64,000 nt of DNA, taken from the NCBI GenBank assembly GCA_025617375.2, contig JAMYGW020000004.1, positions 1,612,001 through 1,676,000 of the forward strand, in the 5' to 3' direction. The DNA comes from Acarospora socialis (taxonomy: Eukaryota; Ascomycota; Lecanoromycetes; Acarosporales; Acarosporaceae). Below the pieces are notes generated by a model that searched no databases, was not told the DNA's origin, and saw only the letters and a list, made by a program, of their open reading frames with translations. Within the stretch, counting starts at the first letter, position 1; each line of letters begins with the position of its first letter. Below are positions 1 through 64,000 of this stretch, in pieces. Position numbers and translations under genes: made by a program.

Positions 1-540
1 GTAGCAATTTTAGATATTACTTCAGACACTGTTAAAAAACTATATAGTGATTTGTGACACAATTAACATTCAAAATATCTCAAATGTCAAAAGAAATCTA
101 CAGAAACTTCAAAAGAAAAAAACACAACTAAAAACTGCAAAGACTGTTATGTGAACAGATCAATATAAAGAATAATGAAATTTAACACACTTATATATTT
201 ATGATGTGAGATATCATTATTGAAGATCTTTAAGCTCTGATGACAGTTGTTTTCTTTATTAAAAGTAATTTAAGTGTTTTTTATGCAGTAACACTCATCA
301 TATATAAGACTGCAAATATCTTTTTACTGTTCACAAGTATGAGACTAGTCTTGACAGCTACATGACTGTAAACTTCATAGATTGAGATGCATAAATAGAA
401 TTGTCACTAGTTTTTACAAAAAAAAAAGTGTGTTCTTTTATTTCTTTGCAAAGACTGACTTACTAAGCATACTAATTATGCAAGATCTTGCAAGAGAGTT
501 CTAGCTCTTCACAAATCAAAGTGAGCTTACAACAAGATCA

Positions 541-795
541 TTGAGTAAAGAAGTTACTGACTTAATCATGATTAAGTCATTTATGAAGTCAGATAAGTTG
601 ACTGCAGTTATGTCACATTATAATAAGTCAAGATTTAAGTTCAAATGCAAGAAAAACAAACATAAAACTTTTGATACTGAGATCAAGAAAGACAGCAATT
701 TATTATTATTGAAATCTGAAGTGAAGAAGAAAATTAATGATGAGATTACTGTTTTATTTAAAGAAACTGTTCATAAGATGTTCAATTTTAAATAA
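541..795 (+). pseudogene. Copia gag remnant (COP1)
   Basis: An open stretch of about 84 residues that is rich in lysine and matches position for position the minus-strand frame at 51477-51773 in COP3. Both contain a block of the form SxxNKxRFKFKxKK followed by a K/E-rich tail. Position between the 5' end and the integrase places it in the gag or gag-protease part. The assignment rests on order in the element and on the shared frame in two copies, not on a recognised catalytic motif. It is a fossil piece, not a working gene. Confidence 0.6.
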
Positions 796-1859
796 GTTGT
801 TGATTTTAAATCTTTATTATACATAATTAATTAACTTTAACTCTTCAGTGACTCTTTAATATGCATAAGATGTTGATGAATTAAAGTTGAAAAAAAAGAA
901 CTACACTTTTATTACTGTGAAGTAACAGTCATATAAAATAAATTGAAAAACTTTGTTGATCTAAGTTTCACACTTTATATATCTAAGCTTGAAGTCAATC
1001 TTCTGTCAGAAAAATGAATGTGTAAAATGAAGTTGTATAATCATTTTGATTAATACAGTCTCTATATGTAAAATAAGTATGATAGAATTATGACAAAAAG
1101 TGTTTGAGTAAAAAGATGTTTATATAGTTAAACACATTGCAAAGAATCTAAATGAATTCATTTTAATGTCTGTTATACATGTAATGTTTTCACAAAAGAT
1201 TTCTCTTGTATTAGAACTAAGAGTTTTGACTTATTGATATAAAGATTCTCAGACACAGTTGTCAAGTATAATTCTTAGATTGTTATTTAAGTTGTACATG
1301 ATTATTTTCATAGAAAAAACAATTCTACTATATACTAGAAACTTAATGTTCTTATATGTTGAGTTGATCTTTCAATTAATCAATTCATTAAGTTGATTAC
1401 TCAATCTGTTGAGTTATCAAGCCATTATGTAACTTGTTCTTGACAAGCAAACTGTCAAACACTCACTCAACATACAAGTCAATCTGCATCTTATCTCTCT
1501 GAGTATAACTATAACAATATACACTTCATTTGATTCAGAAAATTGTTTTTTCAGTTACAGTGAATATAAATTCACAAATTGTTCAAGATAACTGCTGTCA
1601 ACTTCAATATTAAGTTAATTACAATTAATATGAGTCACAAGACAATAAGATTAAAATCTACAAACTGTAACATCAGTAATTTGTTCATCTCAGTTCTGCA
1701 AAGCTCTGCAATCTTTATAAAATTATAATTTTTGAAAAGTTAATTTTCATTATTGAGAACAAAAAAAACATATGTAAAATCTGTGTCATTATTAAGTTTG
1801 TTAATCAGTGAAAACATATTGTGAATGAGTAAAAGATCAATATTCTTACTTTAATTTTC

Positions 1860-2330
1860 ATTAATATATGTGATTCTCTGCTCTTGTCATTTACTGAATA
1901 TTAGTATTTTTTGAAAATTGTAAACAATTACTCATAAAAGATATAAACAATACTGCTGAAACAACATAACAGTGTTTTACAGAAACTGCAAGAGTAATAA
2001 TTAAAAGTTGAGCTTCAAAGTAACACAAAGATTCTGACTGTATAAAGTGACAATGTCACTGAGTTTAAAGTTATTCTTGATAACTGATACAAATCTTTTA
2101 ACATTACATCACAATACATTATGTTTTACATGTTTATTCAGAACAATGTTGCTAAAAGAGCAATTTGAATTACTGAGAACTCAGTGTACATAATGATCAA
2201 AAAAACTGAACTTTCAATAAAATTCTAAGTGAAAACAATGTAAACAAACATCTATCTTTACAATTAAACAGTAACTGACTTCTTAATTAACAGCAAACAA
2301 ACAATCTCAGAGAAGATCTTCATCAATAAA
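1860..2330 (+). pseudogene. Copia integrase core remnant (COP1)
   Basis: The plus strand reads as a decayed Copia-type integrase. Near 2047-2067 there is SDNVTEF, the counterpart of the SDNGxEF motif around the second catalytic aspartate. About 25 codons later, near 2136-2165, comes QNNVAKRAI, the counterpart of the QNGVAERxxRT motif that precedes the catalytic glutamate. Order and spacing match Copia integrase. The integrase lies before the reverse transcriptase, which is the Copia rather than the Gypsy order. Confidence 0.75.
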
Positions 2331-3786
2331 AAATTATTTATTGATTATATTTATGTATGAAAATACAAAGATTATATCTATATTGACTTCAAGTTTCTGT
2401 CAAAAGACAGATAGAATAAGTTTATGAATTTTGCTGTTAAGTTTGTTGAGAATGAGAAGAATAATAGCATTAATTTCAAACTGCAAAAACAGACATTAAA
2501 CACTCTGTTGAAGCAACAATCAGTTAAATAATTATAAAAAAATACAATCACTGCAAAATTCACAGCATCTATAACTTCACTTACAATTACTGAGTAAATT
2601 TACAGATTCAAATTTGTGAACTTAAATAACAAAAAAATGTCAAAATTAACTGCAGTCAATCTCAACACATCTGTGTCAGACATCAGTACAGTGAATAAAT
2701 TAATTATAATTAACTTAAACAGATTACAGATTAATGAATAAGATAAAATCAAACAATTTTTATATATTAAGATTTTCATCAACAAAACAAACAAATCAGT
2801 AGAGAACACTTTAACTGAGAAAGTCAGAACATTCTTGTGTGTTGAAATTTTAAAGAGAAAATGAGACAATAATGACAACAAGTAAAACTTAAACAAATCT
2901 TTGTTCAAGATGTCAAGAGTTATGTTGACATTAATTATTTTCACAGCAAATAAAGAAAATCATAACAACATCAGATTTGACATTTCTACATTTGTCATTC
3001 ATGTTGAAACAGTGAAAGATTTAATTTAAAAATAGATGTAAAAAATATTATTTATACAGAGTTAACAATCTTAACAACAAATGAAATCTGAGAAGAAGTT
3101 GTGTCATTAAAGAATGTAAACAATGTGACAAACAAATAAATATTTAAACTTAAATTAAACACTGATGAATCTCTGAACAAACTTAATTATTAATTTTGAT
3201 ATAGTGTATGAATTTAGTGAAAGTCAATTTATACTTAAATACTCTGACTCAAACTATACATCAGACAAATAAAATTAAAAGTTTCATTTTAAAACATATC
3301 TATATGCTTAAAGATGAATCAGTATTGTAAATAAGTTAAAAACAGAAATCTGTTGTCACATCAATCACTGAGACTGAGTACATAGTTATGTCAATGTGTG
3401 CAAAGATTAAAATCTAACTCACTTAAATACTAAGAGACATGAATATAAATAAACATCTTAAAAACAACTTATACTATATAAACATTAAAGAAGATGAAAT
3501 TCATCAGATCACTTTATTTCTTCAGTTAAAAGAAAATAATTAAGTTGTTTTAATTTTAATCAAGAACACACATATGCATGAATAATTAAAACACATTAAT
3601 ATTGTTATCATCATGTTCATGATCTGCAGAAGAAAAATTAAATTTAGATGAATTTTGTGTTCAGTTACAACATAATGATTGATGAACTAATTAAGTTCTT
3701 GTTTAAACAGATCTTTGAGCATTTTGTGAAATAGTTGAAACTTGCTGTCAGTGAAAGTCAATAAATGCAGTGTCACTGAGTGAAAT

Positions 3787-4009
3787 TGTTGAGAAGTGTG
3801 ATGTTCTAACTGCTTTCATTGTTCTAGTTAGTTTAAGTGTCAGAAGTTGATTTATGTAGTAAATGAAGTTGATTGCAGTTAAATACAATCAATATAATTC
3901 ATGTTGATTACAGTCAAAATAATCAATTCAGATTGACTACAGTCAATCTTAATGATATATATTTCACTAGATAGACAGTATAGCACAAGTATTCTTTTAT
4001 CTTTCAATA
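3787..4009 (+). repeat. COP1 3' LTR (long Copia LTR subtype)
   Basis: A 223-bp repeat that begins TGTTGAGAAGTGTGATG and ends in TTTCAATA. It is the reverse complement of the LTRs at 41480-41701 and 52911-53132, so the element points to the right. The short inverted ends (TGTTGA, TCAAYA) are typical of an LTR. It contains the TGACTACAGTCA dyad shared by the long subtype. The base right after it (4010) resumes B-family Gypsy sequence. Confidence 0.9.
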
Positions 4010-11559: not shown

Positions 11560-12030
11560 TTAATGTCTTTTATTAGTTGCAGACATTGTTTTCAAAACTC
11601 ACAATACTCAGTCATTTCAACTCAAAGTATCAGCTTTATATTGATCTGAATGAGTTGAAGAAATTTGATTTTGATGCTCATGTTTATCATGCAAAACCAC
11701 AAAAATTATTGATTAAAACAGCAATTACTACAATAATAAAATCAGATTCAATATTATTAGTTAATTACACTTCATTCATTACATTGCTAAGTCAGAAGAA
11801 CACAGAATTTTTTTTTTTTTTTAGTTGTCTTTTTACTGATATTGACACATGATACTGATCTATGAAACTTAAAGTTGTAAGTATTGTCTGAGTGATCAAG
11901 AAAGTTTATTATATGATTGAAGTGATTAAACTGACAACAATTATATATACTGATCATTTCACTGCTGTTTTTATAGTTTAATAATTCAGTCTGAATACTG
12001 TTAATGTTGAAAAGTTAAATGTTTATTTTA
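11560..12030 (+). pseudogene. GYB1 RNase H remnant
   Basis: The open piece at 11577-11852 contains LYIDLNELKKFDFDAHVY, the counterpart of the start of the RT-associated RNase H domain (D-A-S-x-x-G-F-G-A pattern). Further on, near 11945-11960, an IYTDH-like segment fits the later part of the domain. The mariner transposon interrupts the element at 12031, just past this domain. Confidence 0.7.
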
Positions 12031-12100
12031 TAAGAGTATGTGTCATAAGTCATTGCACATGTGAATTTGGGAAAATTTTGAAAATTTCTAAGTCAATTCA
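12031..12100 (+). repeat. MAR1 left terminal inverted repeat (with TA)
   Basis: Seventy bases that match the reverse complement of 13414-13483 with three mismatches, all transitions. The repeat starts TA-AGAGTATGTGTCATAAG. The leading TA is the target duplication. Confidence 0.95.
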
Positions 12101-13481
12101 CCACATAATGATTTGTCTAACCCACACCTCTAAAACCACTCATAGTCATGCATTTAAATCATATTTAAATCATGAATTCTATAGAGTCATCACTTTCTTG
12201 TAAGAAAGTCAGAAACAAATGAACAATCTTTACATACTTCTGTATTTGACATCTTAAGTGAAAAGACTACTTGTTTTGATGAATTTTGAACAAATTTTGA
12301 CAGATTTATGACATTGAAATTTCTCATTCAGCTGTGCATCACATATGTAACATCAAGGTATATCTTTTTTAGAACTATTTTATACTGTATTAACATATAA
12401 AAGTGTATCAGACACAATCAAATCAAGCAAACTGATTGATCAAGAAAGATTAGTAATTGCACTGCTCACTATCTAGTCTGTATCTGTTGCATCAGCTGAT
12501 ATGACAGATGAAAGATCTATAAGTAGTTAGCTAAATTTATTGTGCTGAATGTCTCAGTCACTATGGTATGTTGAGTACTCAAACAAATTGAATATTGATG
12601 ATGCATTGTCTGTTCTCACTCATTTATCACTGAAAAACAGACTGCAGTTAGACAGAAATGAGCACTAAATCATTAAGATTGAACTTTGAATAACTGAACT
12701 CATGTGATTTGAACTGATAAGTATTTCTTTGAGACTGAGCAGCAAGATTGCATCTGAATCATCAGATCTAGCACTGAAAAGTACTGTTCTATCTGCATAA
12801 AGTGCAATTATTGTTCTGAATGCTGCACTTTCATGGTATGAGATGCAATTAACTGAGAATATAAGTCTAAACTTGTCTTTTTGCAGAAGAATGATTCTAA
12901 GAACAAAAGTAAGAGATTATTTTCTGAAGTTTACTATGTAAAGTGTACTGATTTACTCAGAAATCAATTTGAAAGCTTATATCAAGCAAGTTCTTGAAGA
13001 TGTTGCAGTGTCATTTCTGCAAGATCTTGAGAAAGAAATTGAACACACTGTCTTCATGAAGAATGATGTCAAGATTCATCAGAAATTTGCAAAGTCTGTA
13101 AGAGCAAGATATGAAATTAAAGAATCTGATAAGAACTGATCATCATCATTTTCAGATTTGAATTCAATTGAGAAGATATAAAGATGAATAAAGACTAGAA
13201 TTACTGAAATAAAGTTCTTTTCAGCAACTAAAAAAAAACTCATGTGTGTGGTGCAGAAACTATGAAATGAGATGAATTCTATGATGTTTCTTTCTAATAT
13301 TGAGAAGATGTTGAAGAAGTTATGAGAGATAATTAAGTGACATGAATTTGCTACTAAATACTAGAAGTTTCTGCCTGTGTTGTAGATTTGTGTAGCTAGC
13401 TAGGCAGCTAGTTTGAATTGACTTAGAAATTTTCAAAATTTTTCCAAATTCATGTGTGCAATGACTTATGACACATACTCT
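12033..13481 (+). mobile_element. MAR1: Tc1/mariner DNA transposon
   Basis: A 1449-bp DNA transposon with long terminal inverted repeats (12033-12100 and 13414-13481) and a duplicated TA on each side, which is the hallmark of the Tc1/mariner superfamily. It encodes one transposase on the plus strand. It is inserted in GYB1 between RNase H and integrase. It is notable for base composition: about a dozen GG or CC dinucleotides survive within it (for example 12069-12071, 12121-12123, 12357, 12565, 12835, 13250, 13374, 13403, 13444), against roughly ten in the remaining 62.5 kb. It must have arrived late or has been exposed less to the mutation process. It is still inactive because the transposase frame is broken. 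Confidence 0.95.
12240..13390 (+). pseudogene. Tc1/mariner DD34E transposase, broken
   Basis: The transposase would bind the inverted repeats and cut and rejoin the element DNA. Near 12305-12360 the frame EISHSAVHHICNIK looks like the second helix-turn-helix of Tc1-type DNA-binding domains. The C-terminal catalytic part is plain: HTVFMKNDVKIHQKFAKSVR at 13044-13103 holds the second aspartate (codon 13065-13067), and SDLNSIEKI follows with the glutamate at 13170-13172. That leaves 34 residues between them, the DD34E spacing of Tc1 transposases. The frame is open from about 12960 to 13136 and then has several TGA stops where the family has tryptophan (for example 13137-13139 and 13182-13184), fitting G-to-A change in TGG. 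Further frame loss in the N-terminal half makes the exact start unclear. Confidence 0.85.
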
Positions 13482-13483
13482 TA
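13414..13483 (-). repeat. MAR1 right terminal inverted repeat (with TA)
   Basis: Reverse complement of 12031-12100 with three mismatches. The last two bases, TA (13482-13483), are the right copy of the target duplication. AGCT-rich sequence (TAGCTAGCTAGGCAGCTAG) lies just inside it. Confidence 0.95.
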
Positions 13484-15528: not shown

Positions 15529-16378
15529 CTTGTTTATTCTTACAAAATAAGATCTTCAGTCTTACAGTACTTTCACTATTGCAAGAAGTTACTTGTTGTA
15601 AATCTTATATTTTTTCTTGAAGTCTGATAATTTTCTAAATTAATACACTATGAGTTTTCATTACTTTTCTTCAATCTGATATAAACATGTGTTTATTGTA
15701 AAATTTGAAGTTTCAGTTTTCAGTATCTTCTTATATACTGAATTAAGTATTCTCAAATGTGCTGTTTCATTAAGATTTCTTTTTAATATGTGAAATGCAT
15801 TTTTTTAATTTCTTTCTCAATGTCATTCTTTACTCTTATATGTCAAACACATCAGTGATTCTGTGATCTTTGTATAGTTTGATATGAACTTTTAATAGTA
15901 GTTAATCAATTCTAAAAAAACTTATACTTTCTTAATTCATTTTAATGTTGATCAGTTTCTGACTGCTTTTATTTTCTTTAAATTTTTCTTAATTTGTTCA
16001 GATCAAATCACATAGTTTAAAAATTTAATTTTCTTGATCTCAATCTGCTCTTTAACTTTTTTATTTACAGAGCTTTTTCATTGAACTTTATCAATATCTT
16101 GTGTACATGTTTGTGATACTTCTCAAAATTCTCTAAATATATCAGAATGTCATTAAAATATATAATTATAAAATTATCAAAATATTCTCTTAACATATCA
16201 TTGATCAATCTCTAAAAGATAACTGAAGTGTTTTTTAACTTAAACAACATAACTATATACTTATAATATTCATATCTTGTTCAGAATGCTGTTTTTTACT
16301 TTTTTTCTTCTTTTATTTTCACTCAGTAATAGATCTTCTCAAAATTTAAGCTCATGAATTACTTAATCTTGTTTAATT
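15529..16378 (-). pseudogene. GYA1 RNase H and reverse transcriptase remnant
   Basis: Minus-strand sequence matching 44677-45527 of GYA5. It spans RNase H and the C-terminal part of the reverse transcriptase. It is cut on the left by GYB1 and on the right by COP2. Confidence 0.78.
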
Positions 16379-16383
16379 AATTC
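16379..16383. repeat. COP2 target-site duplication, left copy (AATTC)
   Basis: AATTC before the TG of the left LTR is repeated at 27874-27878 right after the other LTR. Confidence 0.88.
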
Positions 16384-16593
16384 TGTAAAGAGATAAAAAA
16401 ATACTTATGCTATACTGCTGATTAACTGTTTATCTAGTGAAATGTACATAATTGATTTAAACATAATTGACATAAATTGTAAAGATTGTTCATTCACATA
16501 CTCTGTTACACAGACTATATGAATAATGAGTAATTTTTAATGTTAATCTCAACTAAAACTATAAAAGCAGCTAGAACATCACACTTCTTAACA
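16384..16593 (-). repeat. COP2 3' LTR
   Basis: A 210-bp LTR of the short Copia subtype, from TGTAAAGAGATA to CTTCTTAACA. Paired with 27666-27873. Confidence 0.9.
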
Positions 16594-16999
16594 CTTTTAC
16601 TTGATGACACTGCATTTATTGATTCTCACTAACAGCAAATATTAGTTGTTCAATAAAGTGCTTAAAGATTCATTTAAATAAGAACTTAATTAATTCATCA
16701 ATTATCATGTCTTAACTGAACACAAAGTTCACATCAATCTGATTTTGTTTGTGCAGATTACAGATATAATGATAAATAATATTAATGTGTTTTGATTACT
16801 TATGCACATATACATTTTTAATTAAAGTCAAAACAATCTGATTGTCTTTCTTGAGCTGAAAAGATAAGACTGCTTGATGAGTTTTATTCTTTTTAATGTT
16901 TATATGATATGAATTATCTTCAAAATACTTATTCATATTTATGTCTTGCAACATCTGTGTAAGTCATACTTCAGTCTTTGCACATATTGATATAATTAT

Positions 17000-20532: not shown

Positions 20533-20575
20533 TCATTTCTTCTCTTTCAGATATTAATTTTTTAGACTTATTTAA

Positions 20576-26352: not shown

Positions 26353-26357
26353 AGTAT

Positions 26358-43340: not shown

Positions 43341-43932
43341 TGATTTGAAGTGATATGAACTGATTGCAATGCTGTAACATGAATGCATGAAATATTGAGT
43401 GTATTCTCATTTTCTTGAGTAAATCTAGCTCATAACTTAACTCTTTGATGTTTCATATGATCTTAAATAATTCAATGCTTTTGTTCTTCAGCTTCTTGCT
43501 TTTTTTTTTGATTTATATGTTGTTTATTTTTAAATATATTCTTTCTTCTTCTTCAAATAATTTTGTCTCTGTCATTTGTTTCATCTGCTGTTCAATTCAT
43601 TTTGTTAAATTTTGATGCAGTTTCTTCATCTGAGCAATATTCAAAATTGTTTTTTGACTTCATGATTCATATTCTTTGAAATCTCATCATATCTTCAAAT
43701 TGTAGTCATAGTTCATATAGAAAGACATTTCTTCTGTGATTTTGTTTCTTGCATTATTGTATGCAAACTGTACTGTTGATAACAGTCATACTTAATTGTC
43801 TTGACTTTTGCTGACATAGTGTCTCAAATATATTTCTATCATCTGATTCATTCATTTACTTTGTTCATCTGTCTGTGAGTAATATGCTGTTGACATCTTA
43901 TGTTTTATTTTGAGTTCTGCTGTGAGCATTTT

Positions 43933-44118
43933 TCAAAATTTGCTCATAAATAGTTTGTCTTTGTCAGTGATAAATTTCTTTAATATTCTGTAATTGCTAA
44001 TCAATTCTTGCAGTATGATGTATGTCAATACTGATGCTGTCATGATTTCTTTGAATGAAATGAACATTGTATACTTAATTAATCTGTTCACTATGATCAA
44101 TATGCTATTGAATTTCAC
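43933..44118 (-). pseudogene. GYA5 integrase core remnant
   Basis: Open piece of 61 residues: FNSILIIVNRLIKYTMFISF, then TASVLTYIILQELISNYRI, then KFITDKDKLFMSKF. This is the Gypsy integrase core from the first catalytic aspartate region (VDRLTKxxxFIP in the family) to the second (SDRDxxFxSxF). Confidence 0.88.
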
Positions 44119-47100: not shown

Positions 47101-48146
47101 CTACACATGTATTTTCTTTGACTGTCACTACAACATTTTTTCTTTTCATCTGAGATCTGTTACACTCTCAAACAAGATGTTCAGATTTTCTGCAGTTATA
47201 ATACATTTATATTTTGTTTTACAGTGTCATCTAAGACTTAGTGAATCACTCTGACTGACATTTATACTCTGTTTATCTAATCTTTTATGACTTCTGACAG
47301 CACTTCTTAATTATATTGAAATTCATAGAATTTGTTTCTCTATGTCTTATTAGTGAAATGTATCACTTAATTCATGATTAAGAGCTTTCTTCTTGATCTT
47401 CTATTATAGATGACATTTAATATTTTTTTTGTTTCATCTGTTGTTTTCACTGACAACTATCAATATTAATACTCAAATTGATCATTCTCTGAAGATTGTC
47501 TGATTATTCTGCTCAGACTATTTTGTTTTTAATGAACTTTCTTAACTTACAATAGTACTGATAAATAAGTGCTTCATTATTTCATCTGATAAGTATCACT
47601 AAATGTTGAAACTCTGTGATATATACTGTTGCTGATTCACTCTGTCATAAGATATAAACTCATTTCTTTGCTGCTCTTTCTTCATCAATCACTCTGAAGA
47701 CTTTTCTTAGTTCTTTTTTAAATTGTGCATAGTCATTGAACATAAACTTCACATCTGCATTGCATTCTTCATACTTTTTTCTCAGAAACTTGTGCAGTTT
47801 GAGATTAATTCAATTGAAGACTGTGTTCACAAGATAGATCATTGCAAACAATGTTTTTTCTTGATTGATTTGAAACTTTGACTGATTGAATTCAATATAT
47901 AGATTGAGTTTTATCACAAAGACTCACAGTTTTTCTTATTCTTCATCAAAGATATTTGATATCTGTATCTTAGATGCACTCAAAGATAGTTGTATTGCTT
48001 GAACTGACATCATCACTGATTGTGTCATCATTCTATCTGAAGTAAATAATAAAGATGAGTTTGTCTGAGCTTATTTCAAGAACAAGATTGAGATGTTCTT
48101 CTGTGTGTCAAACATTATACTTGTTATATTGTAAGAGTGTTCAAAG

Positions 48147-48507
48147 TATAATATTCTAATTTGAGCTTTCTCAGATATGTAAAACTAAGAGTTTGTATTT
48201 ATTAATATAACAGCTGATCTGAAATGATTCTGATCTTTAACTCTTAGATTGTTATTTAAGTTGAACATAATTGTTTTCATAAAAGAAATGATTCTACTAT
48301 ATAGAATATGCTTAATGTCTTTGTGTTGAGCACTCTTGATGTTTCAATGTCTTGATGTTGAGAAGTTGAGCTTTCAGCTTGTCTGCTTGTCATTGAGCTG
48401 TTGCATCATTATGTGATTGCTGTTTAGCAGTTTTCTTTGTATGCACTCTGAGTGAACTTTTAATCACAGATTCATGAGTTTCTTTTTCTTTAGAGATGGT
48501 TGTAACA
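48147..48507 (-). repeat. GYA5 5' LTR
   Basis: A 361-bp LTR, TATAATATTCTAATTTGAG to TGGTTGTAACA, paired with 42285-42645, with a rare GG near 48499. Confidence 0.92.
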
Positions 48508-48698
48508 TATATTATGTCAACATTAATGATTGATTTAACATATCATAATAATTCTTTAAATACATGTTCATGATGTTCTACAAAATCACTGAAATACTGA
48601 CTTAGTTAATTTAGAGTAAAGATAATGTTCAGTCAAATATGAATTGCTGTATACATCAAACTTATAATAACTTATTGATACTGTTTTTAATTTATTCT

Positions 48699-48914
48699 TC
48701 AATCAGTTGAATCAGCAGAATGAAAAGTGTCATATTTATTGAGTAAAATCTCAGTGATTTTGTGCTTATCAGATTGCATATGAAGATCTTTTAACATCTT
48801 ATTTATGTAGTGAGTTTGATTCAGATGCAAAGTTCTTCTCTTGTGATTGCATGTAATTTGAATGTCAAGAATTTTTTGTGTCATTTTTAAATTCTTAACT
48901 TTAAACATCTTCAC
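48699..48914 (-). pseudogene. COP3 reverse transcriptase C-terminal remnant
   Basis: Seventy-one open residues: KMFKVKNLKMTQKILDIQIT, then LHLNQTHYINKMLKDLHMQ. This is the well-known Copia block after the YVDD box (xFxMKDLGxxxxxLGIxI ... LxQxxYxxxxLxxFxM). It identifies the family as Ty1/Copia. Confidence 0.88.
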
Positions 48915-51476
48915 AAAAACTTACTTAAATCAGAAAACATATGACAGATCTGCTAAAGCTACAATAATGTTATTTACATAAAAAAGCAATATAATCTTCT
49001 TAATACTGTAAATGAGAAGATAAGAATCTGCATCATTTTGATGAAAGTTTTATTTTTTTAATTCATCAATATATTATTTATATTAGTTCATTGCAGCTTA
49101 CTTAAGATTATAAAGACTGTGCAGTATGTGCAGTGCACAATTGAGTGCAACTTTAACTTTAAGAAAAATCATCATGTAAATAGTTTTCTTGAGAAAGAAT
49201 TTCATGAAAATATTATTAAAATTCATCTAATAACACTTCAGATTCTTACTTAAGTGTGATAATGATTAAAAAGATTTAAAGAATATTGAATTTGACAGTA
49301 AATGCAAAAATGTTTTTGTAATCAATATTATACATTTAAAAGAATTCTCTTGTTATAACTTTTGTTTTAAGTTTGTTCAGAGATTTATCAATGTTCAACT
49401 TGTACTTAAATCTTTATTTGTTTGTTACAATATTTGCATTCTTTAATGACACAACTTTTTTTTATATTTCATTTGCTGTCAAAACTGTCAACTTTGTGTG
49501 AATAACATTTTTTTACATTTTTTCTCAAATTCAATCTCTCATTACTTCAATATAGATAACAAATGTAAAAATGTTAAATTTGATGTTATTGTGATTTTCT
49601 TTATCTGTTGTGAAAGTAATTAATGTTAATATAATTTTTGACATTTTGAACAAAAACTTATTCAAGTTTTACTTGTTGTCATCATTGTTTTACTTTCTTT
49701 TTGAAATTTCAATGCACAAAAATGTTCTGACTTTCTCAGTTGAGATATTCTCTGCTGATTTGTCTGTTTTATTGATGAGAATTTTAATATATGAAAACTG
49801 TTTAATTTTATCTTATTCATTAATCTGTAATCTGTTTAAGTTGATCATAATTAATTTTTTTGCTGCACTGATGTCTGACACAAATGTGTTGAAATTAATT
49901 ATTTATTTTTAACATTTTTTTATTATTTAAGCTCACAGATCTGAATCTGTAAGTTTGTTCAGTAATTATAAGTGAAATTATAAATGTTGTGAGTTCTGCA
50001 GTAATTGTGTTTTTATATGATTACTTAATTAATTTTTGCTTTGACAGAGTATTTAATGTCTGTCTTTGCAGTCTGAAATTAATGCTATCACTCTTTTTAT
50101 TTTCAATAAACTTGACAATATAACTTCTGATAATTTGTTTAAGATTTGAGATTTAAAACAGATACTGCTTTGTAATTTTCTTCATATAGTTTATAAAAAC
50201 TTTTACTTATTCTTAATTCATAAACTTATTCTGTCTATCTTCTGACAGAGATTTAAAGTTGATGTAGATAGAGTATTTACAGTTTTACATATAAATATAA
50301 TCAATAAATAACTTCTCATTAGTGAAGATCTTCTCTGAAATTATTTACTTACTGTTAATTAAAAGATTAGTTACTGTTTAATTGCAAAAATAGATGTTTA
50401 TTTATGCTGTCTTTACTCAAAACTTTATTGAAAGTTCAGTTTTCTTAATCATTGTGTGCACTAAGTTCTCAATAATTTAAATTACTCTTTCAGCAACATC
50501 ATTCTGAATGAACATGTAAAGTATAATGTATTGTGATGTAATGTTAAAGAACTTACATCAGTCATCAAAAATAATTTTAAACTTAATAACATTATCATTT
50601 TGTACAGTCAGAATCTTTGTGCTGCTCTGAAGCTCAACTTTTAATTGTTATTTTTGCAGTTTTTGTAAGACATTGTCATGTCACTTTAATAATATTATTT
50701 ATATCTTTTGTGAATAGTTGTCTACAATCTTCAAAAAGTACTAATATTCAGTAAACAACAAGAATAGAGAATCACATATATTAATAAAAATTAAAACAAG
50801 AATATTGATCTTTTACTTACTCATAGTGTATCTTTGTTGATTAACAAACTTAATAATGTTGCAGATCTCACATATGTTCTTTTTGTTTTCAGTAATGAAA
50901 ATTAACTTTTCAAAAATTATAATCTTATAAAGATCATGAAGCTTTGCAGAATTAAGATGAATAAATTGTTAATATTACAGCTTGTAGATCTTAATCTTAT
51001 TATCTTGTGATTCATATTGACTACAGTCATCTTAATGACTTGTAAGTTTGTATTCACTGTAACTGAAAGAACAATCTTTAAGTTAAATGAAGTGTGTATG
51101 ACAGATATTAAAGTGAATTCATTTAAACTTTTTGCAATATATTTAACTATATAGACATCTTCTTGCTCAAATACTTTTATCATAATTTTGTTATGTTTAT
51201 TTTACATATAGAGATTTTGTTAATTAACATGATTATACAGCTTTATTTTACACATTTATTTTTCTGACAGAAAATTAACTTCAAGTTTAAACATATAGAA
51301 TGTAAAATTCAGATCAATAAAGTTTTCTGATTTATTCTATATGACTATTACTTTATAGTAATAAAAATGTAATTTTTTCTTCTCAACTTTAATTCATCAG
51401 CATCTTATGCATATTAAAGAATCACTGAGAGTTAAAGTTAATTAGTTATGTGTGATGAAGATTTAAAGTTAGCAAT

Positions 51477-51773
51477 TTATTTAAAACTGAATATTTTATG
51501 AGCAGCTTCTTTAAATAAAATGACAATTTTATCATTGATTTTTTTCTTCACTTTAAGTTTCAATGATGATGAGTTGTTATCTTTCTTGATCTCAGTGTTG
51601 AAAATTTTATGTTTGCTTTTCTTGTATTTGAACTTAAATCTTAACTTATTATGATGTGAGTTGACTGCAGTCAACTTATCTAACTTTATAAATAATTTAA
51701 TCATGATCAAGTCAGCTGACTTCTTTAACTCAATGATCTTGTGAACAGTGAAAAGATATTTATAATCTTGCAT
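51477..51773 (-). pseudogene. COP3 gag remnant
   Basis: Ninety-eight open residues that match the frame at 541-795 of COP1, including SHHNKLRFKFKYKKSKHK and a lysine-rich tail. Its position is between the 5' LTR and the integrase. Confidence 0.6.
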
Positions 51774-52889
51774 ATGATGAGTGCTATCACATAGAAAACA
51801 CTTAAATTGCTTTTGATGAAGAAGATAACTGTTATTGAAGCTTGAAGATCTTTAATAATGATATCTCACATCATAAATATATAAGTATGTTAAATTTCAT
51901 TCTTCTTTATGTTGATCTGCTTACATAACAATTTCTGCAGTCTTCAGCTGTGTTTTTTTTTCTGAAGTTTTTACAAATTTTTTTTGACATTTGAGATATT
52001 TTAAGTGTTAATTGTGTCATAAATCACTATATAATTCTTCAGTAGTATCTAAAGCAATGTCTGAAATTGCTGCTTTAATTTAAATAAATTAATCATATCA
52101 GACTGAGTTGCAGTAATCTTTCTGTTGAATTTATTAAGAAGAGTTTATATTTTATTAATGAATATATTTATTGACATTTTATATTTAACAAACTTCATCA
52201 AATATAATCTTTCAGTAATCTGCAGCTTTTTCTTGTACTTGAATTTCAGAGTGTTTCAGATTTTCTTTATATTTATTTTGTTTATTAAATATTCTTGATT
52301 ATCTACATTAATATAGATAATAAATCAATACAAAACTTTGATATTGATCTTCTGACTTTCAAAGTCAAGATTATTTAAAGAAAAAAAGAAATCACTAATA
52401 AATATATTAACTGCAGAAATCTTAATAACAGATCATAGTTTTTTATTTATCAGTCATCTCTTCATGAAAGTAAATCATTGATTGCAGTTTGTCTGAGTGA
52501 GAACTGAAATAAATTGTCACTTTGTAAAGAATTCATCAAAATTCATAATGTAGCTTGTGATGACAGTTGACACATAGTATAAAAAATGAAGTATTAATAA
52601 GAATATAATCAATGAATAAAGTTAGAGAAAAAATATGTTAAATGTCTTCTTTAGATGAAGACAGTACATAGATGTTTATTTATTTTGTTGACTTGTAGTA
52701 AGCTGCTGAGAATATGTACTTAATTTTTTCAACTATTTGAATTTTATATCAAGTTGCTGAGAATCTCATTTTACTCAATCTTTTGAGCTCTGTATTGAGT
52801 GTTAAGAGTATTTGTTTTGTTTAATCATTTGAGTTCTGTAACAAAGCTGTCAAGATATTAAAAGTATGCACTTTTTCTGAAAAGTTTCT

Positions 52890-52910
52890 TGCTAATTCAG
52901 ACTCATAACT
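52890..52910 (-). other. COP3 presumed primer-binding site
   Basis: Next to the 5' LTR the minus strand reads AGTTATGAGTCTGAATTAGC. The same block is present next to the COP2 and COP4 5' LTRs. Its TTATGxGxxCxG core resembles the internal tRNA-iMet (anticodon stem) primer site used by the Drosophila copia element, instead of a site for the tRNA 3' end. Confidence 0.45.
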
Positions 52911-53132
52911 TATTGAAAGATAAAAGAATACTTGTGCTATACTGTCTATCTAGTGACATATATATTATTAAGATTGACTGCAGTCAATCTGAATTGATTA
53001 TTTTGACTGTGATTGACATGAATTATATTGATTATGTTGACTGCAATCAACTTCATTCACTACATAGATCAATCTCTGACACTAGAGCTAATTAAAACAA
53101 TGAAAGCAGTTAAAACATCACACTTCTCAACA
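52911..53132 (-). repeat. COP3 5' LTR
   Basis: A 222-bp LTR, TATTGAAAGATA to CTTCTCAACA, with the perfect 18-bp dyad GATTGACTGCAGTCAATC at 52972-52989. Followed by GATAC at 53133-53137. Confidence 0.92.
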
Positions 53133-57864: not shown

Positions 57865-58074
57865 TATTGAGAGATAATAGAATACTTATGCTATATTGTT
57901 GACTAACTGTCTATTTAGTGAAATGTACATCATTAACTTGACTGTGATCAACATAAGTTGTAAAGATTATCTACTCACATACTCTGTCATGCAGACTATA
58001 TGAGTAATGAGTAATCTTTAACACTAGTCTCAACTAAAACTATGAAAGCAATTAGAACATCACATTTCTCAATA
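57865..58074 (-). repeat. COP4 3' LTR
   Basis: A 210-bp LTR of the short subtype, from TATTGAGAGATA to TTTCTCAATA, paired with 63179-63388. Confidence 0.93.
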
Positions 58075-58599
58075 CTTTTACTCAATGACACTACATCTAT
58101 TGACTCTCACTAACAGTAAGTCTCAGTTGTTCAACAAAGCACTTAAAGATTCATTTAAATAAGAGCTTGATTAGTTCATCAGTCATTATGTTTTAACTGA
58201 GCACAAAGTTCACATCAATTTGATTTCACTTGTGTAAATCACAAATATGATGATAAACAATATCAATGTGCTTTGATCACTCATGCACATGTGCATTCTT
58301 AATCAAAATCAAGACAATCTGATTGTCTTTTTTGAGCTAAAGAAATGAGACTGCTTAATGAGCTTCATTTTTTTTGATGTTCACACAGTATGAATTGTCT
58401 TCAAAATACTTATTCATATTTATGTCTTGCAGCATCTGTGTAAATCAGACTTCAGTCTTTATACATATTGACATGATTATGTATTCAGTCTCTGTAATTA
58501 AAATAATAATAGACTTTTGCTTTTGACTTATTCATGATACTGATTTATCTTTAAGCATGTTCACATGTTTTAAAATTAACATTCAATCTTGCTTGTCTG

Positions 58600-60050
58600 A
58601 TGCATAGTCAAAGTTAAAGTATTTAAGTATGACTTGACTCTCACTGAGTCTGTACACAATATTAAAATTAATGATTGATTTCACATATCACAGCAGTTTC
58701 TTAAGCACATGTTCATGATGCTCTGTGAAATCACTAAAATACTGACTTAGTTAATTTAGAGTGAAGACAATGTTCAGTTAAGTATGAATTATCATATACA
58801 TCAGACTTTTAATTGCATGTTGATACTGTCTTTAATCTATTCTTTGATCAGCTGAGTTGATGAGATGAAGAGTATTATATTTATTAAGTGAAATTGTTGT
58901 GATTTTGTGTTTATTGAATTACATATGAAGATTTCTCAGCATCTTGTTCACATAGTGAGTCTGATTCAGACATAGAGTTCTTTTTTTGTAATTATGTGTG
59001 ACTTATATGTCAAGAATTTTCTGTGTCTTCTTCAAGTTTTTAACTTTGAACATCTTCACAAGAACTTTCTTAAATCAAAAAACATGTGTCAAACTTACTG
59101 AAACTACAATTATATCATTTACATAGAGAAGCAGCATGATTCTTTTGATACTGTGAATGAGAAAATATGAATTAATGTTGCTTTAATGAAAGTTTAGTTT
59201 GTGCAGATCAGTGACACATTATTTATGTTAGTTTTGTGTAACTTGTTTCAGATCATAGAGACTACACAATATACACAGTATATAGTTAAATGCAACTTGA
59301 ACTTCAGAAGAAACTGTCATGTAAATGATTTTTTTGAAAAAGAATTTTATAAAAACATTGTTGACATTTATCTGATAACATTCAAGATTCTTAAGAACAA
59401 TAATGACAAGAAAAACTTAAAAAGTGTTGAACTTAACTGTAAATGCAAAGATGTTCTCATAATCAATGTTATACATCTGTGAGAAATCTCTCATTATAAC
59501 TTTTATTTTAAACTTGTTCAGAAATTCATCAGTGTTCAGTTTAAGTTTGAATATTCACTTGCTGATCATTATGTTTGTATTCTTTGATGACACAATCTCT
59601 TTTCATGTTTTATTGACTGTCAGAGTCATCAACTCTGCATAAATAGCATTTTTTAACATCTTTTCTCAAACTGAATCTTTTACTGCTTCAGCATAGATAA
59701 CAAATGTGAAAATATTAGATTTGATGTTTTCAGTATCTTTTTTATTATCTGTAATAAATGCTGTGAACATCAGCATAACTCATGATATTCTGATTATAAG
59801 TTCATTGAAGTTTTCATTGTTACTGTTTTGTTTTCTCTTCAGAATCTTGATGCACAAGAATGTTTTAACTTTCTCAGTTAAAATATTCAGTACTTTGCTG
59901 ATAAAGACTTCAATATGTAAAAACTGCTTAATTTCACTCTATTTATTTGTCTGTGATCTGTTTAAATTAACTGTAATTAATTTATTTATTATATGAATAT
60001 CTGATGAAAATGTGTCAAGATTGTTTACAGTCAACTTAAACTCTTTTTTG
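58600..60050 (-). pseudogene. COP4 reverse transcriptase remnant
   Basis: The minus strand near 59100-59135 reads RIMLLLYVNDIIVVSVS, the Copia catalytic box (YVDDI in the family). The C-terminal block seen in COP3 follows at about 58850-59050. Positions 59865-60018 are identical to 18385-18538 in COP2. Confidence 0.82.
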
Positions 60051-60399
60051 TCATCTGAGCTCATGAGTCTGAGTTTGTGAGTTTGTTTAAAGACAGTAAA
60101 CAGAGTTGTAGATGCTGTGAAATTTATGATAACTACATTCTTTCATAATTACTCAACTAACTTTCATTCAAACAGAATGTTCAGCATTTATCTTTGCAGT
60201 TTGAGATCAACACTGTCTCTCTTCTTATTCTCAACAAACTTTACAGCATAACTCTTAATGATTCACTTAAGATCTAAAATTCAAAGCAGATACTGCTTTG
60301 TGATTTTATTTGCATAGTTTATAAAGACTTTCACTTATTTTTAATTCATGAACTTGTTCTGTCTGCTTTTCAACAACAACTTAAAGTCAACATAGAAGT

Positions 60400-61300
60400 A
60401 GCACTTGCAATTTTAGACACAAATATAATTAATGAATAATTACACATCAGTGAAGATCTTCTTTAAAGTTATTTGTTTATCATTGATCAAGAAATTAATT
60501 GCTATTCAGTTGTGAAAATAAACATCTGTTTACACTGTCTTCACTTAAAACTTTATTGAAAGTTCTGTCTTCTTAATCATAATATACACTAAATTCTCAG
60601 TGATACAGATAACTCTTTTAACAATATTATTCTGAATAAACATATAAAGCACAGTATACTACAGTGTAATGTTAAAGAATCTGTATCAGTCATTCAAAAT
60701 TGATTTTAACTTTGTAACATTATCACTTTATACAACAAGTATTCTTGCATTGATCTGAAGTTTAATTTTTAATTGTTACTCTTGCAATTTCTGTAAGATA
60801 TTATTGCATTACTTCAGCAATATTGTTTATATCTTTCAAAAATAGTTGTTCACAATCTTCAGAAAGTACTGATGTTTGATAAATGATAAAGATAAAAAAT
60901 TATATATGTTAATGAAAATCAGAACAAGAATGTTGATCTTATACTCACTTATAATATGTTTTTGCTGATTAACAAACTTAATAAGAACACAGATCTCACA
61001 GACATTCTTTTTGTTTTCAACAATGAGAATTGACTTTTTCAGAATTGTGATCTTGTGAAAATCACAAAGCTTTGTACTATTAAGATAAGCAAATTATTGA
61101 TGTTACAGTCTGTAGATCTTAGTTCTCTTATTTATGTCATTGACTTAATTATGATTAACATGAGTTTGATTCTGTAAATTGATGTTAATAACACTTAAAA
61201 TCTCAGTTATCACAAAAAACTCATGAGTCTAAGTCTGTGAGTTTACATTCTGTACTGTGATTGAAAGAGTAGTTTTTGAGTTAAATGATGCATGTATGAC
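60400..61300 (-). pseudogene. COP4 integrase remnant
   Basis: Matches in reverse complement the COP1 region with the SDNxTEF and QNxVAxRAI blocks (1860-2330). It lies between gag and reverse transcriptase, as in Copia. Confidence 0.7.
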
Positions 61301-61679
61301 AGATATTAAGACAAATTTATTTAGACTCTTCACAATATGTTTAACTATATAAACATCATCTCACTCAAACACTTCTATCATGATCTTGTCATGTTTATTC
61401 TGCATGTAAAGATTATGTTGATTAAAACTTTTATGCAATTTGATCTTATACATTTACTTTTTCAACAGAAGATTGACTTCAAGTTTAAATACATAAAGTG
61501 TTAAGCTCAGACTCACAAAGTTTTCAGATTCATCTTACATGACTGTTACTTCACAGTAGTGAGAGTATAAATGTTTTTCTCAACTTTGATTTATCAGCAC
61601 TGTGTGTGTATTAAGAGATCATTAAAAAGTTAAAGTTAATCAGTTATATATGTTGAGATTTTAGAATCTGCAACTCATT

Positions 61680-63150
61680 TTAAGTTGAGTATTTTATTGA
61701 TAGTTTTCTTAAACAAAGTAACAATCTTTTTCTCTTGTTCTGTGTTTTTCTCAGTGTCAAAGTTCAAGAAAATTAAGTAGCTTTCTGTCTTAATCTCTGT
61801 CTCTGCATCAAAGACTTTATACTTTTTTTTTGTACTTGAATTTCATTTTGACTTTTTGTTGATGTAAGTTGTCTGCAAACAACTTATCTAACTTTCTGAC
61901 TGACTTAATCATGATTGAGATAATTGACTTTTTAACAGCTTTGTGAACAATAAAAAAATACTTACAGTCATGAATATGATAAGTGTTGCTGTATAGAAAG
62001 CATTTGTATAGTTTTTGATGAAGAAAGTGATTGTCATTGAAGCTTAATGACTTTTAATAATGATATCTTACATCATACTGATATAAGTACATCAAATTTT
62101 GTTCTTTTTTGCACTGATCTGCTTACAGAGCAGTTTCTGTGAACTTAAACTGTGCATTTTTTTCTTGAAGTTTTGATAACTTCTTATTCACAACAATGAA
62201 CTATAAGTTGATATTGTTACAGACTGTGCAATAGTTTTTTAACAGTACTTGAAGCAATACTTGAAAATATTATTCAAAAGTATTGAGACTGTCAATGTCT
62301 GATTGTGCTGTGACAAGCTTTCTGTCAAGCTTGATTAAATAGATTTAAACTTTATTAATGAACTCATCAAATAACATCTTATTAACAGTAAACTTCATTA
62401 AATACTGTCTGTCATTGATGAACAGTCTCTGTTTATACTTTGTTTTGAGTAACTGTTAGATCTTTCTTGCAGTAGTTTTCTTTGCAAGAAGTTCTTAATC
62501 ATTCTCACTGATGTAGATGTTCAGTCAATAAAGAGTCTTTGCATTGATCTTTTAATTTTCAAAATCAAGACTGTTTAGTGAAAAGAAAATGCTGCTGCTT
62601 TTGAATATGTTATTAACAGAAATTTAACTTTTAATCACAGATCAGAGATCTTCATCTATAAGTCACTGCTTTATGTAAAAAAATTATTGATTAAAGTTTA
62701 TTTGAGTGAGAACTGAAACAGATTGTCTTTTTGCAAAGATGTCTTCAAAATTCATAATGTAGCTTGTGACAGCAGTTGACACATAATATAAGAAATAAAT
62801 AAACTAAAGTAATAAGATGTACAAAAGAAGATAATGTAAATAAGAGAAAAGATATGTGTTAAATATTTTTCTTTGATGAAGACAGTGAATACTTATTCAT
62901 CTTGTTGACTCATAATAAGCTGTCAAAACTACAGTGCTCATTTTGAGCTGCTGCTTGCTTGTTTGTCTGTATGAAACACATATTAAGTTGTTGTATATGC
63001 TTATTTGTTCACTGTAAAATGCATAGTAAGAGCTGCTTACTCATTTGTCTTCAATGAAACTCATATCAAGTATCATGTATCTTGTTTTGTCTAATGTAAA
63101 ACTTCATATCAAGAATCAAAACACTAAAACAGTATACACTTTCTCTATAA
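61680..63150 (-). pseudogene. COP4 gag region remnant
   Basis: Matches the gag regions of COP3 (51480-52880) and COP1 (1-800). The AGTAT at 61688-61692 marks the site where GYA3 inserted in COP2. Confidence 0.65.
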
Positions 63151-63157
63151 AGCTTCT

Positions 63158-63178
63158 TGCTAATCTGAGCTCATAATT
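63158..63178 (-). other. COP4 presumed primer-binding site
   Basis: Minus strand next to the 5' LTR reads AATTATGAGCTCAGATTAGC, the same block as in COP3 and COP2. It resembles an anticodon-stem tRNA-iMet priming site. Confidence 0.45.
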
Positions 63179-63388
63179 TATTGAGAGATAATAGAATACT
63201 CATATTATATTATTGACTAACTGTCTATCTAGTGAAATATACATTATTAACTTAACTGTAATCAACATAAATTGTAAAGATTGTCTATCTGCATACTCTG
63301 TCATGCAGATTATATGAATAATGAGTAATTTCTGATACTAGTTTCAACTAAAACTATGAAAGCAGCTAGAACATCACACTTCTCAACA
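63179..63388 (-). repeat. COP4 5' LTR
   Basis: A 210-bp LTR, TATTGAGAGATA to CTTCTCAACA, followed by AGTAC. Confidence 0.93.
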
Positions 63389-63393
63389 AGTAC

Positions 63394-64000
63394 AACAATT
63401 AACAAAGATAATCATCAAAAGATATATTAAGTTGAGCAGTATGTATTACTTTCATGATTTCTTCTTCAATTTTAACAGTTTTATTTAATATATTCTTAAT
63501 TAATAATCATTCTGAAAGAGATTTAATGATATTAGAAGACTGTTAATTTATTGATATTAAAACTTTTTTTCTCAAGAGTTACTCAGCAAATTTATCTTTT
63601 CAATGAGCAGTTACAAATTTCAAATGTTTACTGACAGACAAATATCTTATAAGTATTGCAGAAAGCTGTGAAGAAATTCTTTGAAAAAAATAGTATAATT
63701 TAAAACTTCTTCAATACAAAATTTTAATAACTACTAGACATCAATTTCTGTGCTATTTATGTTAAATATATTATGATTTAAGTTAAAAATATGATCTTGA
63801 TTGAGCAGTTTTACAAGTGACTCTTATTTTATGACATTATTTCATCAGAATTTATACATTAAATTAAAATATGTAATATAGTTAAGTTTGTAGTCTGCAA
63901 ATAAGAGATAACTTTGAGATCAAATTCAAATATTATGTAGTATGCTTCTACTGCAGCAAAGTAATAAGTTTATTTTGAAATTTAAAGAAATTGTAAACAT
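63394..64000. other. Unassigned stretch right of COP4
   Basis: AT-rich sequence continuing the target of COP4. Short plus-strand open pieces, but no motif, repeat or RNA gene that I can name. It is as depleted of GG, CC and CG as the elements. Confidence 0.4.

What the first reader, a model, noticed from the sequence alone, without database searches (positions are those of the whole stretch)
1..64000. Mutation signature on C followed by C or G, not the classical CpA context
Seen: no CG found on reading, and only about two dozen GG/CC in 64 kb, while CA, TG, CT, AG and GC stay frequent. In the mariner element, tryptophan positions appear as TGA, as expected if the second G of TGG (a C before C on the other strand) changes. 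Classical fungal RIP in Neurospora prefers CpA and would deplete CA/TG and raise TA. A signature that clears CpG and CpC almost to zero and leaves CpA alone points to a different methyltransferase specificity or a different deamination route.
Basis: partly seen in the sequence, partly recalled or inferred. Interest (0 to 1): 0.75.

Follow-up and report, generated by a model that had tools for sequence, protein, structure and literature searches.

The report
Transposon graveyard mutated at CC and CG
A 64-kb stretch of dead transposons, probably from a fungus, has lost every CG and almost every CC/GG to C-to-T mutation while most CA and CT survive, which resembles the fungal anti-transposon process RIP but with nearly the reverse target preference.

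Summary
The composition is real and extreme: CG 0 (953 expected), CC 13 (977), GG 11 (930); CA and TG enriched 1.5-fold; GC 24.4%. The window is largely nested LTR retrotransposons (Ty3/gypsy, Ty1/copia) and other repeats. The youngest copy pairs differ by 11-19% transitions but under 1% transversions (12 pairs), so directed C-to-T mutation made them. A three-copy hold-out test gives hit probabilities per copy: CpA 26% (430/1636), CpT 30% (407/1343); where other copies imply an ancestral CG or CC, none survives (0/343 and 0/227). Simulations with CpC and CpG far faster than CpA and CpT reproduce most of the dinucleotide table; Neurospora-like, equal, CpG-only and APOBEC3G-like models do not. 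In CC the 5' cytosine is the target. Standard RIP indices of 127 windows positive. Best reading: a RIP-like mutator preferring C followed by C or G ("CpS"), about 15-20-fold over CpA/CpT. Published orders seen here put CpA, CpT or CpG first. Host species and enzyme are unknown (no host genome held); homology dependence and enzyme are inferred.

The parts
1..64000 (.). Whole window: CpS (C followed by C or G) clearance throughout; no unmutated island or boundary seen inside the window
   Evidence: CG 0 in every 4-kb block; 24 CC/GG in all; 0 of 127 1-kb windows pass standard RIP thresholds
20214..26352 (-). LTR element A1 (Ty3/gypsy, coding strand -), nested in B1; LTRs 20214-20532 and 26034-26352 differ by 52 transitions and 2 transversions; flanking target-site duplication AATAT/AGTAT
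22498..22890 (-). RT_RNaseH_2 / RT_RNaseH domain of A1 (E 1.3e-14 and 9.3e-12; Ty3 RT-RNase H 4ol8 E 1.4e-9)
21288..21464 (-). SH3_Tf2-1 domain of A1 (E 1e-7)
35135..41271 (+). LTR element A2, same family as A1, opposite orientation; 946 transitions and 57 transversions over 6135 aligned bases to A1
42285..48508 (-). LTR element A3, third copy of the A family, least eroded of the three at CpA/CpT (GC 28.6%) yet CG 0 and CC+GG 2
16363..27873 (-). LTR element B1 (Ty1/copia), interrupted by A1; LTRs 16363-16593 and 27647-27873
17550..18116 (-). RVT_2 (copia reverse transcriptase) domain of B1, E 1.1e-17
57865..63388 (-). LTR element B2, 5-bp target-site duplication AGTAC on both sides; LTR pair 25 transitions, 0 transversions
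48507..53130 (-). B3, larger part of a third B-family copy; its other part is 41480-42287, on the far side of A3
532..4009 (+). B4, part of a fourth B-family copy, inverted
12031..13483 (.). TIR element flanked by TA with about 67-bp inverted repeats, no Pfam domain found; least mutated stretch: 14 of the 24 CC/GG, CG 0; its two arms differ at one CpG and one CpC site and at 0 of 16 CpA/CpT sites
11802..11984 (+). Weak RNase H match (E 0.0064, below the Pfam cut-off) of a further gypsy relic into which the TIR element appears inserted
31666..31842 (-). Mutated histone H3 relic (Pfam Histone E 5.3e-6; PDB H3 chains E 9e-8)

Best explanation
The window is a repeat-rich, probably heterochromatic block of a eukaryote, most likely a filamentous fungus. 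Its transposon copies were hit on both strands by a RIP-like C-to-T process that strongly prefers cytosines followed by C or G (5'-CpS-3') over cytosines followed by A or T, by about 15-20-fold. Shown: the mutations are C-to-T on both strands; the 5' C of CC is the target; CpC and CpG go to completion while CpA and CpT are hit in about a quarter to a third of cases per copy; the damage is nearly the same in young and old copies. Inferred: new copies are recognised as repeats, hit within a short time (premeiotically, as in RIP) and left alone once copies have drifted to about 81-88% identity; and the enzyme is a C5-methyltransferase-type mutator (RID/DIM-2/DNMT5-like) whose +1 reading accepts C or G.
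For: Dinucleotides. Between LTRs of single elements, transitions to transversions: A1 52:2, A2 36:2, A3 67:2, B2 25:0, B1 31:6; longer pairs A1/A2 946:57, B1/B2 632:30. Hold-out estimate on three-copy alignments (my sums over trios A1-A2-A3 and B1-B2-B3, six focal copies; 14 gapped cells in B3 and 1 in B2 dropped): CpA 430 hit of 1636, CpT 407 of 1343, CG kept 0 of 343 inferred sites, CC kept 0 of 227; the six further trio runs with B4 also list no CG or CC kept. Simulation controls on the same estimator: CG kept 108 of 225 and CC 104 of 224 at equal dose 0.38, 74 of 349 and 70 of 325 at equal dose 0.8, 41 of 68 and 57 of 140 for a Neurospora-like order, CC 86 of 218 if only CpG is fast; the CpS model gives 0 of 611 and 0 of 208. 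The CpS model predicts CA 1.35-1.46, TC 1.24-1.32, CT 1.13-1.16, GC 0.98-1.03 over ancestral GC 0.40-0.55; observed 1.47, 1.27, 1.19, 1.06. Residual CC: of 15 listed comparisons (about five distinct sites) the other copy reads TC in 11, CT in 0, TT in 1, TG in 1, CC in 2. Low-dose case: TIR arms changed at 1 CpG and 1 CpC but 0 of 16 CpA/CpT. Transitions barely rise with transversions: mean 14.8% at tv<1% (12 pairs), 17.1% at 1-4% (26), 18.0% at >=4% (19), slope 0.20.
Against: No host genome, unaffected region or methyltransferase could be examined, so repeat-specificity, timing and enzyme are not shown. 16.1 kb without a detected copy in this window are mutated too, all but the inside of the TIR element as heavily as the rest; whether they have copies elsewhere is unknown. 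Ts and tv are weakly but significantly correlated (Spearman 0.37, p 0.004), so some slow continued deamination is possible. The simple simulation fits imperfectly: best chi-square 59 on 8 features, about 130 TA per kb against 112 observed, TA 0.80-0.89 against 0.72, probably because the ancestor was not a random sequence. CpC sites were inferred indirectly (one copy TC, another CT), because direct CC is almost gone, and cells are shared between focal copies, so counts are not independent. One conserved Pro codon reads CTG in A1, i.e. its second C changed; this fits CCG (CpG hit first) but is not by itself CpC evidence. The strand-tract test on the four longest pairs found no clustering of hits, if anything the reverse, so it gives no support for tract-wise RIP.
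Confidence: 0.72

Rival explanations
1. Slow decay of methylated heterochromatin: cytosines at CpG and CpC are kept methylated (DNMT5/DIM-2/Masc2-like maintenance) and deaminate over time, without any homology-triggered burst.
For: A methylation signal read from the +1 base would also give a CpS pattern. Zymoseptoria Dim2 does put 5mC at CG, CA and, less, CC (PMC8016269, passages). The weak ts-tv correlation fits some slow component.
Against: Transition divergence is nearly flat over a more than tenfold range of transversion divergence, and elements with 0-0.6% LTR transversions already have CpS almost fully cleared. The A1 insert nested inside B1 is as eroded at CpA/CpT as its older host (0.304/0.328 against 0.284/0.340); but B3 (0.349/0.440) is more eroded than its insert A3 (0.150/0.232), which fits this rival.
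Confidence: 0.2
2. Two separate processes: ordinary CpG methylation-deamination plus an independent process acting on CC/GG (and weakly on CpA/CpT).
For: CpG mutation is known in several fungi (PMC4352252, passages; PMC4457147, passages). In the least mutated element CG is 0 but 14 CC/GG remain.
Against: A CG has two targets, one on each strand, so equal per-cytosine rates already predict CG to vanish before CC (inference). The other elements counted have CG 0 and CC+GG 0-2; one CpS specificity is enough.
Confidence: 0.12
3. Classical CpA-directed RIP.
For: LTR retrotransposons, both-strand C-to-T and about 24% GC resemble RIP-affected regions (mean GC 20.8-22.8% in the large RIP regions of three tabulated genome assemblies; PMC7882544, passages).
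Against: TpA/ApT 0.79, (CpA+TpG)/(ApC+GpT) 1.46, composite -0.67, against 1.6, 0.2-0.3 and 1.3 in those regions; 0 of 127 windows positive. TAG/CTA at 0.56 of expectation while CAG/CTG is 1.46.
Confidence: 0.02
4. A single-strand deaminase of APOBEC3G type (target the 3' C of CC).
For: CC is the classical APOBEC3G context (recalled).
Against: In CC the 5' C is changed (11 TC, 0 CT). A 3'-C model predicts CT 1.43, TC 1.0, GC 1.5 against 1.19, 1.27, 1.06 observed. Near-equal C-to-T and G-to-A counts are not explained either.
Confidence: 0.02
5. Sequencing, assembly or chemical-conversion artefact.
For: Total absence of a dinucleotide is suspicious.
Against: AA and TT are normal (1.05, 1.01), so no homopolymer collapse; C-to-T and G-to-A are near-equal; elements are nested with target-site duplications and differ individually. 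No reads were available to check.
Confidence: 0.02

Closest known systems
Repeat-induced point mutation (RIP) of Neurospora crassa (RID, with a DIM-2 branch)
   Same: C-to-T on both strands in transposon copies, extreme GC loss, target set by the base after the C
   Different: N. crassa order CpA>CpT>CpG>CpC (as quoted in PMC5496416, passage); here CpG and CpC far ahead of CpT and CpA
RIP of Trichoderma reesei
   Same: CpG is a strong target
   Different: CpC is the weakest context there (PMC5496416, passage)
CpG-biased RIP-like mutation of basidiomycetes (Microbotryum, Ganoderma, Rhizoctonia) and of Tuber
   Same: CpG mutated in transposons
   Different: No CpC clearance in the passages seen; Ganoderma's second context is CpA (PMC4457147). 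In Rhizoctonia AG8 the SNP table counts CpC more often than CpG (every 214 against 370 bp genome-wide, not corrected for context frequency, although the text stresses CpG; PMC4014442), the nearest hint of CpC targeting found
Zymoseptoria tritici Dim2-dependent methylation and mitotic mutation
   Same: 5mC placed at CG and at some CC
   Different: The resulting mutations are predominantly at CA; CG sites are methylated but not mutated at high rates (PMC8016269, passages)
Double mutations CpG->TpA and CpC->TpT in Monilinia
   Same: CpC involved
   Different: There beside the classical CpA->TpA pattern (PMC8959702, passage)

Membership tests
RIP (repeat-induced point mutation), general sense | C-to-T transitions on both strands concentrated in repeated DNA | tested here: met
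   LTR and element pairs with ts:tv up to 51 or with no transversion, low-tv pairs; C/T and A/G differences near-equal (5085 and 4943). Only repeated or unclassified DNA was available, so concentration relative to unique DNA is the next row.
RIP (repeat-induced point mutation), general sense | Unique DNA of the same genome is spared | not testable with these tools
   No host genome held; a genome-wide state is excluded only by the codon argument
RIP (repeat-induced point mutation), general sense | Triggered by homology, premeiotic, within one sexual cycle | not testable with these tools
   Only indirect: transition level nearly flat against transversion level
Classical Neurospora-type RIP | CpA is the preferred target; product index >1.15, substrate index <=0.75, composite >0 | tested here: not met
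   0 of 127 windows positive; whole window 0.79, 1.46, -0.67 (thresholds from PMC7882544)
RID/DIM-2/Masc-type enzyme as the agent | A DNMT1-class gene in the genome | not testable with these tools
   No host genome; PF00145 was not among the hits of the window frames scanned with Pfam (not all 64 kb were scanned)
CpG-only methylation-deamination | CpC behaves like other non-CpG contexts | tested here: not met
   CC kept 0 of 227 inferred sites, against 86 of 218 in the CpG-only simulation
APOBEC3G-like editing | 3' C of CC is changed | tested here: not met

The most novel reading that the evidence does not exclude
A homology-triggered genome-defence mutator with a nearly inverted dinucleotide code (CpC and CpG far above CpT and CpA), run by a methyltransferase or deaminase that reads a strong (C/G) base at +1. 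It would destroy essentially every Gly, Pro, Trp and CGN-Arg codon of a transposon and leave a composition that the standard RIP indices score as unmutated, so whole clades with this defence could have been recorded as lacking RIP.
Probability: 0.45. Interest if true: 0.78.

Novelty: new variant of a known kind. Interest (0 to 1): 0.62.

Why it matters
The published surveys I read in part describe fungal transposon mutation as CpA, CpT or CpG directed, with CpC last where an order is given. A CpS-directed version would show that the base read after the C can change almost completely, which makes the question of what sets RIP specificity (RID, DIM-2 or another factor) testable by comparing the host's enzymes with those of CpA species. 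It also exposes a blind spot: the TpA/ApT and CpA+TpG indices give 0 of 127 positive windows for a region where essentially every CpC and CpG has been mutated. The ratio (CpC+GpG)/(TpC+GpA), already defined in RIPCAL (PMC2621366, passage), would find it. For transposon annotation, Gly, Pro and Trp codons are absent or nearly so from such relics, so ordinary domain searches can miss them.

Tried and rejected
Open frames with TGA read as Trp: none of 250 aa. Frames read through all stops (TGA=W, TAA/TAG=Q): no Pfam hit for A1 on its + strand or for the TIR element; the - strand and other regions gave RT/RNase H, RVT_2, SH3 and histone hits. Of the 2-kb inverted pair 4015-6038 / 7038-9107 only the first copy was scanned, six frames, one sub-threshold hit (E 0.059). 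tRNA and Rfam scans: nothing.

Looking for the organism: a transition-tolerant LTR pattern in viral contigs and genome contigs, a TIR pattern in viral contigs, an RT-region protein query in viral contigs, and a blastn of 4 kb against plasmids gave nothing. The species is unknown. Fungal identity is inferred from element types and the RIP-like mutation.

The idea that hits come in strand-specific tracts was tested on four pairs and not supported. The H3 relic as a test with a known ancestor: 25 of 41 changed residues can be explained by C>T/G>A alone, 16 cannot, so it is too diverged to measure context.

Literature: ten searches of the open-licence library; listings were cut (15 of 1,044; 20 of 38; 12 of 33). 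No listing or read passage describes a signature dominated by CpC plus CpG. Subscription papers, among them Clutterbuck 2011 and Horns 2012 (the latter asked for and not held), were not read, so prior description cannot be excluded. PMC12543289: abstract, outline and passages; PMC4352252, PMC2621366, PMC5496416, PMC7882544, PMC4014442, PMC5555474, PMC8959702, PMC4522978, PMC7493409, PMC4595289, PMC6141143, PMC8016269, PMC4457147: passages only.
Full report
OBSERVATION. In 64,000 bases (GC 24.4%) CG occurs 0 times (953 expected), CC 13 (977) and GG 11 (930), while CA, TG, CT, AG, TC and GA are above expectation and TA is at 0.72. The pattern is the same in all 16 4-kb blocks; the one exception in degree is a TIR element at 12031-13483 that holds 14 of the 24 CC/GG. 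TAG/CTA, a product of CpA mutation, is at 0.56 of a Markov expectation and CAG/CTG at 1.46.

WHAT THE WINDOW IS. Self-comparison gives nested repeats. Family A is a Ty3/gypsy-type LTR element (RT_RNaseH_2 E 1.3e-14, SH3_Tf2-1 E 1e-7; Ty3 reverse transcriptase-RNase H 4ol8 E 1.4e-9) with copies A1 20214-26352, A2 35135-41271, A3 42285-48508 and fragments. Family B is copia-type (RVT_2 E 1.1e-17) with B1 16363-27873 interrupted by A1, B2 57865-63388, B3 (41480-42287 and 48507-53130) interrupted by A3, and B4 532-4009. B2 keeps a perfect 5-bp target-site duplication (AGTAC); that of A1 differs by one transition (AATAT/AGTAT). There is also a mutated histone H3 relic at 31666-31842, a weak hAT match and a weak further gypsy relic around the TIR element.

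DIRECTED MUTATION. LTRs are identical when an element inserts. The LTR pairs now differ by transitions to transversions 52:2 (A1), 36:2 (A2), 67:2 (A3), 25:0 (B2) and 31:6 (B1); longer pairs by 946:57 (A1/A2) and 632:30 (B1/B2). C/T and A/G differences are near-equal (5085 and 4943), so both strands are hit.

CONTEXT, MEASURED. Visible differences lie mostly at CpA and CpT because CpC and CpG are exhausted in all copies. I therefore used a hold-out test. For CpA/CpT: where two copies keep C, how often has the third T? Summed over six focal copies (trios A1-A2-A3 and B1-B2-B3): CpA 430 of 1636 (26%), CpT 407 of 1343 (30%); per copy CpA 15-35%, CpT 15-44%. For CpG: where one copy reads TG and another CA, the ancestor is taken as CG; the third copy kept CG in 0 of 343. 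For CpC: where one reads TC and another CT, the ancestor is taken as CC; kept 0 of 227 (15 gapped cells dropped in these two counts). The six further trio runs with B4 also kept none. Retained cells are shared between focal copies, so the counts are not independent. Simulations show that the estimator does find kept CG and CC when rates are equal (108 of 225 and 104 of 224 at dose 0.38; 74 of 349 and 70 of 325 at 0.8), Neurospora-like (41 of 68; 57 of 140), or fast at CpG only (CC 86 of 218); with CpS fast it gives 0 of 611 and 0 of 208.

FORWARD MODEL. A model with fast CpS (dose 6-7) and slow CpW (about 0.35-0.44, W = A/T) gives the observed dinucleotide table closely except TA (0.80-0.89 against 0.72), and the alternatives do not. 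A grid fit to A1/A2 prefers ancestral GC 0.40-0.44 and CpS dose 3 or more (best chi-square on 8 features 59 at dose 3 and at 6, 88 at 1.6, 156 at 0.8, 279 at 0.4). It underfits TA, probably because transposon genes are not random sequence. At dose 6 the simulated residue is 0.11 CC+GG per kb; observed outside the TIR element 10 in 62.5 kb (0.16). Hence a preference of roughly 15-20-fold (my arithmetic). CpS clearance is nearly complete even in copies with low CpW erosion (A3, GC 28.6%, CC+GG 2; B2, GC 27.8%, CC+GG 0).

DIRECTION AND LOW DOSE. Where a residual CC is aligned to another copy, the other copy reads TC in 11 of 15 listings, CT in 0, TT 1, TG 1, CC 2 (about five distinct sites, some in several listings). 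A model in which the 3' C is the target predicts CT 1.43, TC 1.0 and GC 1.5 and is rejected. The arms of the TIR element, the least mutated case, differ at one CpG and one CpC site and at 0 of 16 CpA/CpT sites, as expected if CpS goes first. In the gypsy RT/RNase H, two conserved Trp positions in three copies read TGA five times and TAA once, never TAG (the first position rests on a recalled motif, the second aligns in A1 to the Ty3 Trp). In the recalled MPFG..NAP motif the Gly codon reads GAA, GAA and AAG, the first Pro TTA, TTA and CTG, the second TCA, TTT and TTT; the CTG needs its second C changed, as in CCG. Extended context: CAG is the best protected CpW site (copies differ at 26% of C-bearing sites) and CTA the least (60%).

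TIMING. Across 57 aligned pairs the transition level is 14.8% at tv<1%, 17.1% at 1-4% and 18.0% at 4% or more; slope 0.20, Spearman 0.37 (p 0.004). The damage thus arrives early and then nearly stops, at about 81-88% identity between young copies. That is what a homology-dependent process would do, but it is inference. Nested pairs give a mixed picture: A1 is as eroded as its host B1, A3 less than its host B3.

REPEAT OR GENOME-WIDE? No host genome is held. A genome-wide lack of CC, GG and CG is impossible for a living genome, since Gly, Pro and Trp codons need them (genetic code). 16.1 kb of the window have no detected copy within it and are mutated too, the inside of the TIR element least.

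COMPARISON. With the usual thresholds (product >1.15, substrate <=0.75, composite >0; PMC7882544) 0 of 127 windows are RIP-positive, although GC is close to that of RIP regions. Published orders seen in passages: N. crassa CpA>CpT>CpG>CpC; T. reesei CpA and CpG, then CpT, then CpC; Leptosphaeria CpA, Botrytis and Magnaporthe CpA/CpT, Tuber CpG then CpA, Microbotryum CpG; Ganoderma CpG then CpA; Zymoseptoria Dim2-dependent mutation at CA. The nearest hint of CpC is the uncorrected Rhizoctonia AG8 SNP table. So it works like RIP in anatomy, but fails the CpA criterion of classical RIP, and the criteria of homology trigger, sparing of unique DNA and enzyme remain untested.

VERDICT. A real and strong signature; most likely a RIP-like process with CpS preference, a new variant of a known kind. 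The absence of earlier description rests on ten searches of an open-licence library, three with cut listings, and part-reading of 14 papers; subscription papers may hold it.

Noticed in passing
window 31666-31842 (-): A mutated histone H3 relic (PDB H3 chains E 9e-8) inside transposon-rich DNA, with in-frame stops; perhaps a duplicated host gene caught by the same process, or a diverged H3 variant (16 of 41 changed residues are not explained by C>T/G>A).
   Followed up: partly
window 12031-13483: TIR element with about 67-bp inverted repeats and flanking TA, no Pfam domain found, with a fairly long damaged reading frame on the + strand; the least mutated stretch of the window.
   Followed up: partly
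window 4015-6038 and 7038-9107: A 2-kb repeat pair in inverted orientation (74% identity); no confident domain in the first copy, the second not scanned as such.
   Followed up: partly
window 54563-54784 (+): Weak hAT C-terminal dimerisation match (E 0.0048, below the Pfam cut-off).
   Followed up: no
whole window: Among CpA/CpT cytosines those followed by G at +2 (CAG above all) are protected, while CTA is hit most; an extended context of the mutator.
   Followed up: partly
window 5840-6036, 7033-7239, 15319-15526: A short, about 200-bp repeat at the ends of the 2-kb family and again at 15.3 kb, 78-90% alike; possibly a solo terminal repeat.
   Followed up: no
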